DNA of 46,271 bases from Bacteroidales bacterium. GTDB taxonomy: Bacteria; Bacteroidota; Bacteroidia; Bacteroidales; UBA932. Of this stretch, positions 11,202 to 13,254 are shown one piece after another (the first letter of the stretch is position 1; every line of letters begins with the position of its first letter). The position numbers and the translations under genes are program-made. The DNA lies in NCBI GenBank assembly GCA_015060225.1, contig SUYX01000006.1, forward strand, positions 44,284 to 90,554, read 5' to 3'. The notes under the pieces are model-generated. The model was not told where the DNA came from, did not search any database, and saw only the letters and a program-made list of their open reading frames with translations.

Positions 11202-11741
11202 TTAATAAATTTCGCTGAGACATTCTATAGCCCTGTGCAGAGGGCCTAACACCTGCCACTTGTGCTTCTTCCAGATATCAGCCAAATCTTCATCCACTTG
11301 ATTGAGTACACTGCTAATGGAATCCATATAAGCCCTGGTCAGCTTATCCCAATTGGCAATGGTAACATCCTTCTCCCTCTGGCGATAATGTTCAACCATA
11401 TTGTCGGCCTCCAGAATCAAATTATCATAGGACTCAATCAAAAGAGATGCAAGGTAGAGGAACTCTACCGGCTCAATACTGCGGCATTCCCCAGGTTTAT
11501 ACTTTGGGGACTTCCCAGCTGAGAGTTTGGACATCCTCATATCAAACTTATCCATATCAAAAGTGTTTTCCGGCAAGCACTTCAGAATGGATACCAGTTG
11601 CCCAAGTTCCGGGATATTGCCCAATAATGGTGTCAGATCCGCATCTTCAAGGACCCTTTCAATCTGTGCACCTATATATCCGAAATACCACATGGTACCG
11701 CCAAGGGCATCTGCCCATAACCCTGTATAATTACTGTTCAT
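11202..11741 (-). CDS. Phage protein of unknown function, tail operon
   Basis: A 179-aa acidic protein, mostly predicted helix, starting MNSNYTGLWADALGGTMWYF. No motif is recognised. It overlaps the end of the upstream 90-aa gene by 11 bp and precedes the basic 119-aa gene, so the three are probably coupled. It could be a tail assembly or connector protein by position only. Confidence 0.65.
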   Translation of the reverse strand: MNSNYTGLWADALGGTMWYFGYIGAQIERVLEDADLTPLLGNIPELGQLVSILKCLPENTFDMDKFDMRMSKLSAGKSPKYKPGECRSIEPVEFLYLASLLIESYDNLILEADNMVEHYRQREKDVTIANWDKLTRAYMDSISSVLNQVDEDLADIWKKHKWQVLGPLHRAIECLSEIY

Positions 11742-12003
11742 TGCTATTCCTCCTCATATATACATCAGCATAAGCAGACCTATCCCATGCCTGGGCCAGA
11801 ACCGGATCTGCCTTTGCCAACAGTTTATAAATTGACACCTCAAAACAATTGGAAAGTTCATTCCATTCCGGTATCAGCTCTTTGAGCCTGCCGGATCCGT
11901 TGACGCTCCGGAAAGATGACAATTCTTTCTCAAGAGAATAAAAATGCTCCATAAGCAGTTTGGCATAGGCCAAACACTCAATATCTGTCCTACTCTTATC
12001 CAT
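11731..12003 (-). CDS. Phage protein of unknown function, tail operon
   Basis: A 90-aa protein starting MDKSRTDIECLAYAKLLMEH. Its start codon shares one base with the stop of the 109-aa gene upstream (TAATG), which implies translational coupling to the gene regulated by the RNA array. No domain is seen. Both this protein and the 179-aa one contain the pattern of an aromatic-rich helix followed by SYDNLIL/HFYSLEK-like segments, so they may be distantly related; this is weak. Confidence 0.6.
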   Translation of the reverse strand: MDKSRTDIECLAYAKLLMEHFYSLEKELSSFRSVNGSGRLKELIPEWNELSNCFEVSIYKLLAKADPVLAQAWDRSAYADVYMRRNSNEQ

Positions 12004-12332
12004 TACTGTTCCTCCTTACAGTTAAAGATCATATAATCCACATCTGGGAGAGGCCTTCTGATTACCATGGATGCAATCTTGAGTTTCATTCTGTCCTTGA
12101 GGCTTACTGCTTCTGTGGCCAGTTCAATGCTTGAGGCGTGGAGCAGGGTGTAAGAGTAACTGTCGGTGTTGGTCTTAAGGAGTACTCCGTACCAGTCATC
12201 GGGAAGAGTTGAGATGATGAACCCTGGGGTTACATCTGAAGTGGTGGTTGATACAATGGCACCTACCTGGTAGGTGTGGGCAACGGCTGCACCTTGTGCA
12301 GTACCGGTTGCAAAAGCATTAGTGGTTTGCAT
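12003..12332 (-). CDS. Array-associated small protein, intact copy (unit 1)
   Basis: A 109-aa protein, first gene of the tail block. The N-terminal ~40 residues (TAQGAAVAHTYQVGAIVSTT and on) are repeated in the truncated frames of units 2 and 3 upstream. The C-terminal part (LPDDWYGVLLKT... to MIFNCKEEQ) is unique to this copy. No domain is recognised; a short beta-rich structural protein is possible. The ATG lies in the loop of a hairpin (stem ATTAGT/ACTAAT), and the ten bases TGCAAACCAC at and after it are exactly complementary to a segment of the RNA element just upstream. Translation is therefore probably controlled by that RNA. It is coupled to the 90-aa gene by a TAATG overlap. Confidence 0.7.
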   Translation of the reverse strand: MQTTNAFATGTAQGAAVAHTYQVGAIVSTTTSDVTPGFIISTLPDDWYGVLLKTNTDSYSYTLLHASSIELATEAVSLKDRMKLKIASMVIRRPLPDVDYMIFNCKEEQ

Positions 12333-12362
12333 AACTAATAGCGTTTTACAAGGTTATTAAAT

Positions 12363-12504
12363 AAAAAAGCAGTCTTTAGGGTTGCAAACCACATCTCGCT
12401 AACGAAATGCTCATGGCCCTTTCGGAACCAACGCCCATAGACTGCTAAACTTACTTTCTGCTTAAAGTTCGTTAGCCAGATTGTATTGTTAAGATGTGAT
12501 TTGC
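12363..12504 (-). ncRNA. Array RNA element, unit 1 (pseudoknotted leader RNA)
   Basis: About 142 nt on minus from the predicted start after the TATCTTTG box. Elements in order: 5' arm GCAAATCACATC (12493-12504); P2 strand GCTAACGAA (12468-12476); a hairpin with stem AACTTTA/TAAGTTT-like arms and loop around AGCAGAAAG; terminator 5' strand AGCAGTCT (12439-12446); a GAAA tetraloop hairpin (12413-12431) with one bulged U; P2 partner TTCGTTAGC (12398-12406); internal arm GATGTGGTTTGC (12384-12395), pairing with the 5' arm; terminator 3' strand AGACTGCT (12368-12375); six T. The terminator stem crosses P1/P2, so the fold is a pseudoknot. The internal arm also matches the start of the gene below. 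Covariation with units 2 and 3 supports the fold. Confidence 0.8.
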
Positions 12505-12508
12505 AAAA

Positions 12509-12541
12509 CAAAGATAATAATAAATTTTCCTTTTTTGCAAA
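12509..12541 (-). promoter_or_regulatory. Promoter of array unit 1
   Basis: A TATCTTTG box (12509-12516) matches the Bacteroidetes -7 consensus TAnnTTTG, with TTTG (12538-12541) 21 bp upstream as -33. Transcription would start at about 12503-12504, exactly at the 5' arm of the RNA. Confidence 0.75.
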
Positions 12542-12553
12542 AAAAATAAAAAA

Positions 12554-12673
12554 GATGATGAACCCTGGGGTTACATCTGAAGTGGTGGTTGATACAATGG
12601 CACCTACCTGGTAGGTGTGGGCAACGGCTGCACCTTGTGCAGTACCGGTTGCAAAATTAGTAGTGTCGGTCAT
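12554..12673 (-). pseudogene. Truncated 5' copy of the array gene (unit 2)
   Basis: Starts ATG at 12673 (MTDTTNFATGTAQGAAVAHT...) and matches the first ~40 codons of the intact gene. Bases 12554-12656 are identical to 12213-12315 in unit 1, a very recent duplication. The codons next to the ATG differ. Homology stops at GGGTTCATCATC and runs straight into the promoter of unit 1, so no full protein can be made. The start-codon hairpin (AGTAGT/ACTACT, 12675-12680 with 12659-12664) is kept with a compensatory change. Confidence 0.75.
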
Positions 12674-12701
12674 GACTACTTACTTTACAAGGTTATTAAA
12701 T

Positions 12702-12838
12702 AAAAAAGCATCCGGTAGGGTTGACCGACACATATCGCTAACGAAATGCCGTTGGACCTTTCGGATCCAACACCCATGGGATGCTAAACTTACTTTCTGC
12801 TTAAGTTCGTTAGCAAGATTGTTAATATGTATCGGTCG
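12702..12838 (-). ncRNA. Array RNA element, unit 2
   Basis: Same architecture as unit 1. 5' arm GACCGATACATAT (12825-12837); P2 strands GCTAACGAA and TTCGTTAGC; conserved AGCAGAAAG hairpin; terminator stem AGCATCC/GGATGCT (12779-12785 with 12707-12713) followed by six T; GAAA hairpin (12751-12771). Internal arm ATATGTGTCGGTCA (12722-12735) pairs with the 5' arm through one U-G wobble and with the unit's own start region TGACCGACAC (12663-12672) perfectly. Arm and terminator sequences differ completely from unit 1 while pairing is maintained. Confidence 0.8.
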
Positions 12839-12841
12839 CAA

Positions 12842-12880
12842 CAAAGGTAAAAAGAATTTTGGAAAAAATTCCTTTTTTGG
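12842..12880 (-). promoter_or_regulatory. Promoter of array unit 2
   Basis: -7 box TACCTTTG at 12842-12849, with the AAAAAAGGAA motif shared by all three array promoters upstream. The -33 TTTG is not clear. The predicted start falls at the 5' arm of RNA unit 2. Confidence 0.65.
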
Positions 12881-12928
12881 GAAAAATGTTGCAAATTCTC
12901 TTCCCGATAAAGGAAGACCTGGGGGAAA

Positions 12929-13006
12929 AATGGCACCTACCTGGTAGGTGTGAACAGCTGCAGCACCTTGTGCTGACTGAGCTGTAAAAGAATCAGTAGT
13001 ACGCAT
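12929..13006 (-). pseudogene. Truncated 5' copy of the array gene (unit 3)
   Basis: ATG at 13006, reading MRTTDSFTAQSAQGAAAVHT then YQVGAI. Homology ends immediately after the palindrome CACCTACCAGGTAGGTG and is followed by TTTTTCCCCC, which could act as a weak terminator. It is more diverged from unit 1 than unit 2 is, so probably the oldest duplicate. The start-codon hairpin is kept (ATTAGT with ACTGAT, one wobble). Confidence 0.7.
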
Positions 13007-13028
13007 AACTAATTATTTTACAATAAAC

Positions 13029-13171
13029 AAAAAAAGCAACCCTTAGAGTTGCGTACTACATTTCACAAGGTGGAATGCTCATGGCCCTTTCGGAACCAAC
13101 ACTCATAGGTTGCTAAACTTACTTTCTGCTTAAGTCCCACCTAAGATTGATATGATAAAATGTAGTCCGCA
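13029..13171 (-). ncRNA. Array RNA element, unit 3
   Basis: Same architecture as units 1 and 2. 5' arm TGCGGACTACATTT (13158-13171); P2 is replaced by AGGTGGGA with TTCCACCT, a compensated exchange; conserved AGCAGAAAG hairpin and GAAA hairpin (13079-13100); terminator stem AGCAACC/GGTTGCT (13108-13114 with 13035-13041) plus T run. Internal arm AAATGTAGTACGCA (13050-13063) pairs with the 5' arm (one mismatch) and exactly with the start region TGCGTACTAC (12996-13005) of its own truncated gene. Confidence 0.8.
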
Positions 13172-13174
13172 TCA

Positions 13175-13210
13175 CAAAGGTAATAATATTTTCCAAGATT
13201 GTTCCTTTTT
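13175..13210 (-). promoter_or_regulatory. Promoter of array unit 3
   Basis: -7 box TACCTTTG at 13175-13182, preceded by the CAAAAAAGGAAC motif. The predicted start lies at the 5' arm of RNA unit 3, as in the other two units. Confidence 0.65.
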
Positions 13211-13224
13211 TGTAAAAAAATAAA

Positions 13225-13252
13225 AAAAGAGTCCAGTTTTACTGAACTCTTC
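13225..13252 (-). terminator. Terminator of the retropepsin-SEC-C gene
   Basis: On minus, GAGTTCAG and CTGGACTC form a stem with a short TAAAA loop, followed by seven T. It lies just past the gene stop and separates it from the array. Confidence 0.8.
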
Positions 13253-13254
13253 CA

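What the first reader, a model, noticed from the sequence alone, without database searches (positions are those of the whole stretch)
12213..13182. Three-unit RNA array with unit-specific complementarity to its own start codons
Each unit has promoter, ~140-nt RNA, terminator and then the 5' end of the same small gene. The internal arm of each RNA is a perfect 9-10-nt complement of the bases at and after that unit's ATG (GTGGTTTGCA/TGCAAACCAC; GTGTCGGTCA/TGACCGACAC; GTAGTACGCA/TGCGTACTAC). The three sequences are unrelated, yet the flanking bases are nearly constant; 103 bp are identical between units 1 and 2. The same internal arm also pairs with the RNA's 5' end, so three sites change together within each unit. 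Duplication followed by drift cannot give this; selection for matched, mutually orthogonal pairings can. The terminated RNA could block translation of a cognate readthrough or foreign transcript. Units 2 and 3 keep the RNA but not the protein, as if only specificity mattered. That would suit a modular superinfection-immunity or type-switching system. I know of no described system with this layout.
Basis: partly seen in the sequence, partly recalled or inferred. Interest (0 to 1): 0.93.

Follow-up and report, generated by a model that had tools for sequence, protein, structure and literature searches.

The report
Barcoded c4-type antisense RNA array
A virus of a gut-type bacterium carries three side-by-side copies of a known kind of phage 'silencer' RNA, each matched to the start of its own gene copy by a private barcode, and related proviruses scatter similar barcoded cassettes through their DNA, which points to a lock-and-key control or immunity system more elaborate than the textbook example.

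Summary
All three units match Rfam RF02944 (c4-2 RNA, clan of the phage P1/P7 C4 antisense RNA) end to end, unit 2 above the gathering score, units 1 and 3 below it. Phage P1's annotated immI region has the same order: promoter, a1/b1, C4, a2/b2, start of icd-ant. Three matched sites per unit are thus a family trait.

New here is the scale. In 27 related units (13 genomes or contigs) the arm matches its own start region by a mean of 13.1 contiguous Watson-Crick bases (at least 8 in 25 of 27; foreign mean 5.9; 0 of 100,000 permutations). Some prophages carry two to four dispersed units with different barcodes, partly before near-identical proteins. In 10 of 10 units with a T-tailed P1 stem, the window's included, the leader is predicted to exclude that terminator-like stem.

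Best reading: self-silencing c4-type cassettes with private barcodes; in the window the RNA half was multiplied. Superinfection immunity is plausible but untested. Sister unit G140d does not match its own start. Verdict: new variant of a known kind.

The parts
12509..12516 (-). unit 1 -7 box TATCTTTG (Bacteroidales TAnnTTTG type; consensus recalled)
   Evidence: 25 of 27 units have such a box before the leader
12363..12508 (-). unit 1 RNA: leader 12450-12508 (a1 site 12496-12505), c4-2 core 12363-12449
   Evidence: RF02944 38.2 bits, 1-79 of 79, below gathering score 41; fold
12383..12392 (-). unit 1 internal arm GTGGTTTGCA
   Evidence: 10-nt perfect complement of 12322-12331
12322..12331 (-). 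unit 1 barcode (target) TGCAAACCAC, overlapping the ATG that begins at 12332
12003..12332 (-). unit 1 full-length target gene, 109 aa, function unknown
   Evidence: no Pfam or PHROG family at E 0.01; with the limit at 1 only phrog_21929 (0.091) and phrog_15098 (0.29), both of unknown function; homologue in G140 (52% identical over 3-103)
12702..12841 (-). unit 2 RNA: leader 12789-12841 (a1 site 12829-12838), c4-2 core 12702-12788
   Evidence: RF02944 41.4 bits, above gathering score
12722..12731 (-). unit 2 internal arm GTGTCGGTCA
   Evidence: 10-nt perfect complement of 12663-12672
12663..12672 (-). unit 2 barcode TGACCGACAC, overlapping the ATG that begins at 12673
12335..12673 (-). unit 2 truncated target copy; frame of 112 codons runs through unit 1 RNA and stops 2 nt before ATG1
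13030..13174 (-). unit 3 RNA: leader 13118-13174 (a1 site 13162-13171), c4-2 core 13030-13117
   Evidence: RF02944 36.0 bits, 1-79 of 79, below gathering score
13050..13059 (-). unit 3 internal arm GTAGTACGCA
   Evidence: 10-nt perfect complement of 12996-13005
12996..13005 (-). unit 3 barcode TGCGTACTAC, overlapping the ATG that begins at 13006
12680..13006 (-). unit 3 truncated target copy; frame of 108 codons runs through unit 2 RNA and stops 6 nt before ATG2
13225..13253 (-). terminator-like hairpin after the preceding gene, which would separate the array from upstream transcription
   Evidence: consensus scan only
11202..12003 (-). two small genes (90 and 179 aa) after the target gene, same strand, overlapping frames
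   Evidence: homologues in the same order in G140

Best explanation
Each unit is a c4-type antisense cassette of a Bacteroidales prophage. A promoter makes a leader (a1 site) plus a c4-2 RNA whose P1 stem with T-run can act as a terminator; the RNA's arm pairs with the start codon and first codons (the barcode) of the small accessory gene behind it and blocks its translation. Shown by sequence: the c4-2 fold with compensatory changes in P1, arm/start and arm/leader complementarity that changes together, orthogonality within a prophage, cassettes at several places of one prophage region (prophage ends not mapped), and barcodes that diverge while the protein stays nearly the same. Predicted by folding only: in T-tailed units the leader:arm helix excludes the P1 stem, so the leader would act as antiterminator until something occupies it, for instance a c4-2 RNA made by a resident copy. 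Inferred: promoter activity, action in trans, that the accessory protein favours phage growth or interferes with a resident prophage, and that barcode diversification reflects escape from, and widening of, silencing between related prophages. In the window the RNA half of one cassette was multiplied to three barcodes while one full-length protein is kept.
For: Family: RF02944 end-to-end in all three units; P1 record with a1, b1, C4, a2, b2, icd, ant in the same order; structure of 11 units, 12 of 15 pairs changed on both sides, covariation score 0.824 vs 0.266 shuffled and at most 0.218 slid (structure derived from the same alignment, and 31 of 500 shuffles reached the count of 12). Pairing: (own mean 13.11, foreign 5.94, 0/100,000), nine further units, energy test on 34 c4-2 units (0/10,000 for start and for leader). 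Leader: 43 of 82 leader/barcode mismatches are C>T or A>G, which keep a G-U pair with the arm, 22.0 expected. Switch: P1 probability 0.00 with free leader and 0.93-1.0 with blocked leader in 10 of 10 T-tailed units; over 25 units 24 have lower P1 with the real than with shuffled leaders. Cassettes: G022 and G183 four units each on one contig, G107 three on C16 (plus a separate c4-2 on C17), G217 two; positions among prophage genes; DNA bodies 88-95% identical while barcodes share 3-7 of 9 bases. Target of one relative, G059, is an anti-repressor by PHROG, as in P1.
Against: G140d breaks the rule (own run 5), and several other c4-2 loci have no clear start match. Leaders are less orthogonal than starts (unit-1 arm on unit-3 leader 13 nt with 4 G-U). 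Flanks are not always better kept than barcodes: the constant RNA part of G022_73993 is only 61% identical to its two paralogues. The window's target has no recognised function. No GG of the described RNase P site precedes P1 in units 1-3 (motif from PMC5320573; sequence). Among units without a long T-run 11 of 15 keep P1 with a free leader, P1 phage c4 shows no leader switch (0.98 free), and shuffled leaders also lower P1 in some T-tailed units (means 0.49-0.97). The folding program forbids pseudoknots, so leader:arm and P1 exclude each other by construction. No expression data.
Confidence: 0.72

Rival explanations
1. Cis-only riboregulator: in read-through mRNA the arm folds onto the start codon 30-37 nt downstream and hides it; no separate trans-acting RNA is needed, and different barcodes only avoid mispairing between neighbouring copies.
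For: Arms and starts form 17-nt inverted repeats (82%) with 30-37 nt between them. Within-prophage orthogonality is expected here too.
Against: C4 of P1/P7 is described as an antisense RNA acting on ant mRNA that underlies heteroimmunity (PMC12197685 passages; PMC5320573 passages and section 16). The multi-helix c4 fold is kept with covariation, more than a simple hairpin would need.
Confidence: 0.2
2. Private switches for accessory genes: barcodes differ so that each gene is controlled alone; nothing to do with superinfection.
For: Cassettes sit among conserved prophage genes; at the tail position the flanking genes are adjacent, without a module, in L076, L084, L085 (and, with part of the upstream gene matched, L077 and L078). 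Within-group foreign runs never reach 8 nt (0 of 44) while 71 of 658 between groups do (the pairs are not independent).
Against: Near-identical proteins with different barcodes in one prophage region give little reason for separate control.
Confidence: 0.3
3. Passive tandem duplication: units 2 and 3 are recent leftovers of the cassette, matched because ancestors were functional, and now decaying.
For: Only unit 1 has the full gene; in sister G140 the distal unit has lost its match.
Against: Units 1 and 2 share 104 identical nt yet have different, perfect 10/10 barcodes, with matching changes in the leader; decay does not create new matched sites.
Confidence: 0.12

Closest known systems
C4 antisense RNA of phages P1 and P7 (Rfam RF01695, with c4-a1b1 RF03163; immI region)
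   Same: Order promoter, a1/b1, RNA, a2/b2, small gene start; P1 with inner hairpins; specificity in a short variable loop (PMC5320573); same Rfam clan CL00128.
   Different: P1 has one unit here, two 7-8-nt sites upstream of the icd start, no T-run after P1 and no predicted leader switch. In the window the site is one contiguous 10-nt barcode (7-18 nt in relatives other than G140d) in the first codons, units are multiple, and the gene is not recognisably icd or ant.
c4-2 RNA (Rfam RF02944)
   Same: Member by model score, unit 2 above and units 1 and 3 below the gathering score; found in 14 of 299 genomes of the family and 18 of 393 of the order.
   Different: I saw no description of arrays, barcoding of starts or several units per prophage in the listings and passages seen; the 2017 paper that I recall as its source is not held.
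C4-like Group 1 sRNAs of Acinetobacter baumannii (PMC5320573, section 16 and passages read)
   Same: 21 C4-like RNAs in one genome (15 full-length ones analysed), variable in the 7-11-nt target loop.
   Different: Targets are discussed as possibilities only in what I read, and a matched start region is not described there; here each RNA has its matched gene behind it.
CI RNA immunity of satellite phage P4 (recalled, no call)
   Same: As recalled: RNA site seqB pairs with seqA in the leader and seqC downstream and causes premature termination, like the leader/arm/start trio here.
   Different: Not compared by sequence; two papers surfaced, neither was read.

Membership tests
c4 antisense RNA clan (RF02944/RF01695) | covariance-model match with the c4 fold | tested here: met
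   41.4, 38.2, 36.0 bits, all 1-79/79; only unit 2 reaches the gathering score 41. P1 covariation in 11 units.
c4 antisense RNA clan (RF02944/RF01695) | RNA loop complementary to the start/RBS region of the gene behind it | tested here: met
   10/10 nt in each unit; 25 of 27 units at least 8 nt.
c4 antisense RNA clan (RF02944/RF01695) | copies of the target site in the leader (a1/b1) | tested here: met
   Leader runs 14, 14, 10 nt with G-U; compare P1 record.
c4 antisense RNA clan (RF02944/RF01695) | RNase P processing at a GGW motif 5' of P1 (described for P1/P7 and A. baumannii; not part of the Rfam definition of c4-2) | tested here: not met
   Motif only: no GG at the 5' side of P1 in units 1-3; processing itself cannot be tested.
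c4 antisense RNA clan (RF02944/RF01695) | target operon encodes icd/antirepressor (true of P1/P7; not part of the RNA family's definition) | tested here: not met
   Window gene without family. Met in one relative: L027:2880-3419, anti-repressor phrog_2127, E 9.6e-6.
c4 antisense RNA clan (RF02944/RF01695) | superinfection immunity | not testable with these tools
   Needs lysogens and plating tests.
P4 CI-type attenuation | leader site, RNA site and downstream site with termination on pairing | tested here: inconclusive
   Three sites present; leader-dependent exclusion of a T-tailed P1 predicted in 10 of 10 T-tailed units, but the program forbids pseudoknots; P4 itself recalled, not compared.
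Type I toxin-antitoxin | small toxic protein repressed by antisense RNA | not tested
   Toxicity cannot be judged; the window target and five family A/B targets scanned have no confident family match.

The most novel reading that the evidence does not exclude
An RNA-only immunity code: resident c4-2 RNAs bind the leader of an incoming copy with the same barcode, force termination there, so that the copy makes more of the same RNA (a self-sustaining off state), and also block its start codon. Phages escape by new barcodes in front of the same protein, and residents widen protection by collecting RNA units, as in the window's array.
Probability: 0.25. Interest if true: 0.87.

Novelty: new variant of a known kind. 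Interest (0 to 1): 0.68.

Why it matters
C4 of P1/P7 is usually told as a single, two-phage example. Here some three dozen natural RNA/start pairs with readable barcodes, several per prophage region and partly shared across prophages, make specificity, cross-talk and evolution of antisense immunity directly testable. They also offer orthogonal translation switches for Bacteroidales, and a possible answer to what the leader copies (a1/b1) are for.

Tried and rejected
Coding-sequence coupling through the array (frames of 108-125 codons that end 2-7 nt before the next ATG) was weighed and given little weight: single units also have open frames through the RNA. The idea that the target is a tail gene was dropped: the module is missing between the flanking tail genes in L076, L084, L085. 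A first energy test with a wide arm is kept only as a family-wide check, because own starts were best of all in just 3 of 34 rows (leaders 10 of 34). In one search the automatic ATG choice was wrong for G022_73993, G183_72510, G217_94757 and G217_111234, so (fixed 60-nt window) is cited instead. Rows dropped: L044 (inside a coding gene); G727 (RNA identical to L115_16887); G022_73993 and L108 (no recognised -7 box). R1 found nothing in G559, so its second unit rests on reading by eye; the first has an Rfam hit. Viral scans with the 109-aa, TMP, 676-aa and constant-RNA queries returned only one contig, the same phage; family A none. No match in 50,697 phage records for the array DNA, the family A protein and the 109-aa protein.

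Full report
What is there. On the minus strand, 12363-13174, lie three units, each with a -7 box of the TAnnTTTG kind (consensus recalled), a 53-59-nt leader, an 87-88-nt structured core ending in a T-run, and then the start of the same small gene. Only the last copy is a full gene (109 aa); the other two are truncated. A terminator-like hairpin at 13225-13253 lies before the array. A 12.3-kb stretch around it occurs at 100% identity in an IMG/VR contig. The internal arm of each core is a perfect 10-nt complement of the bases from the T of the ATG onward, and the three targets each occur once on that strand of the window. The arm pairs with its own leader over 14, 14 and 10 nt when G-U is allowed; foreign arm/start runs inside the array are at most 5 nt, while one foreign arm/leader pair (unit 1 on unit 3) reaches 13 nt with 4 G-U.

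What it is. Rfam names it: c4-2 RNA, RF02944, clan CL00128, with 38.2, 41.4 and 36.0 bits for units 1-3 against a gathering score of 41. The annotated P1 record shows the layout of the founding member: promoter, a1, b1, C4 (77 nt), a2, b2, icd, ant1, and Rfam finds RF01695 and RF03163 there. One review and two research papers describe C4 as an antisense RNA that acts on the ant mRNA and takes part in phage immunity (PMC12197685 passages; PMC5320573 passages and section 16; PMC8198154 passages).

How general the matching is. Rfam's model found c4-2 in 14 of 299 genomes of the host family and 18 of 393 of the order. Over 34 such units (L044 dropped) own pairs were more stable than foreign ones for the start region (-17.7 vs -14.2 kcal/mol) and for the leader (-21.4 vs -13.6), 0 of 10,000 permutations each, although the own start was the single best in only 3 of 34 rows and the own leader in 10 of 34 with this coarse measure. 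A model from 11 close units (R1; 15 pairs, 12 with changes on both sides) then found matches in 7 of 200 genomes of one genus and 16 of 398 of the family. One target family (A), sought in the genome collection, gave 13 loci, all Bacteroidales MAGs by title, 12 of them with a unit just upstream and the 13th at a contig end. In the final set of 27 units the own run is 13.1 nt on average and at least 8 nt in 25; foreign pairs average 5.9, with 71 of 702 at 8 or more, all of them between groups. Nine further units gave 17,17,17,17,17,7,7,9,9 against a foreign mean of 6.0 (55 of 315 at 8 or more); G058_C6 among them has the same RNA as L112. The two below 8 in the 27 are G853_288 (7) and G140d (5). 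One more unit, in viral contig L206, was read by eye only: its arm fits TGCCTAACA at its start.

Cassettes, not only an array. G022 contig C11 and G183 contig C2 carry four units each, G107 C16 three, G217 C6 two, each set on one strand among prophage genes. In G183 three units, and in G022 three, precede nearly identical proteins (DNA body 90-95%), whose barcodes share only 3-7 of 9 bases; the RNA outside the arm is mostly well kept too, but in G022_73993 it is only 61% identical. Barcodes recur between prophages: the G183_83732 arm fits the starts of G022_45045 and G107_7610 over 18 nt, more than those units' own arms (11 nt), and the window's unit 1 fits the distal start of sister prophage G140 over 10 nt. 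Of the 28 matches to the 119-aa tail protein, 12 regions were fetched: five (G022, G727, G747, G107, G217) have one unit upstream of that gene; in L076, L084 and L085 the flanking conserved genes are adjacent without a module, likewise in L077 and L078 as far as matched; L080 and L086 gave no R1 match.

How it may work. Leader sites resemble the barcode but differ preferentially by C>T and A>G, which keep a G-U pair with the arm: 43 of 82 mismatches, 22.0 expected, binomial p 8e-7, against 12 opposite transitions (units are not independent). The P1 stem is followed by five or more T in 10 of 25 scored units, W1-W3 and G140p among them; in all ten the predicted P1 probability is 0.00 with a free leader and 0.93-1.0 with the leader blocked (shuffled leaders 0.49-0.97), against 4 of 15 low values among the others (Fisher p 5e-4). 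T-tailed units have short barcodes (7-10 nt), the others, apart from G140d, 11-18 nt. P1's own C4 shows no such switch. This suggests an attenuator on top of start-codon blocking, as I recall for the CI RNA of phage P4. It is a prediction by a program that forbids pseudoknots, and nothing is shown about action in trans.

Novelty. In the held literature, searches turned up C4 papers but, in the listings and passages I saw, no c4-2 array and no set of barcoded c4 units in one prophage; the nearest is the 21-member C4-like group of A. baumannii. Most subscription papers, including the one I recall as the source of c4-2, were not available.

Noticed in passing
window 12260-12276, 12601-12617, 12934-12950: A hairpin CACCTACC-N-GGTAGGTG about 55-75 nt after the ATG of each gene copy; in the distal G140 copy the same place reads CCTGC-TAT-GCAGG, as if kept through compensatory change.
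   Followed up: partly
window 12335-12673 and 12680-13006; L024 8804-9181: Truncated gene copies stay open through the next RNA and stop 2-7 nt before the next ATG in both sister prophages.
   Followed up: partly
window unit 3, loop CACCTTGTG: A second 9-nt complement of unit 3 to CACAAGGTG about 34 nt after its ATG, a stretch also present in the other copies.
   Followed up: no
L046 (G559:C545) 61-175 and 300-436: Another tandem: two c4-2-like units beside an integrase-like gene and a tRNA-like stretch (both by eye); the first unit seems to lack a gene. Only the first reached Rfam; R1 found neither.
   Followed up: partly
L003, L006, L007, L008, L014, L029, L032, L045: 8 of the 33 c4-2 loci scanned have a tRNA gene within about 1.3 kb, as expected for integrated elements.
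   Followed up: no
L114 and L024 (G140p): The same barcode ATGAACGCC stands before dissimilar target proteins in two phages; each arm fits the other's start over 8 nt.
   Followed up: no
L049 5578-6137: Two neighbouring genes share the first 17 residues MVTKINFNGQERIAVIL behind one c4-2 unit and then diverge.
   Followed up: no
L260 1731-1812 (phage P1 leader before C4): Sub-threshold match to isrK RNA (35.1 bits, gathering score 50).
   Followed up: no
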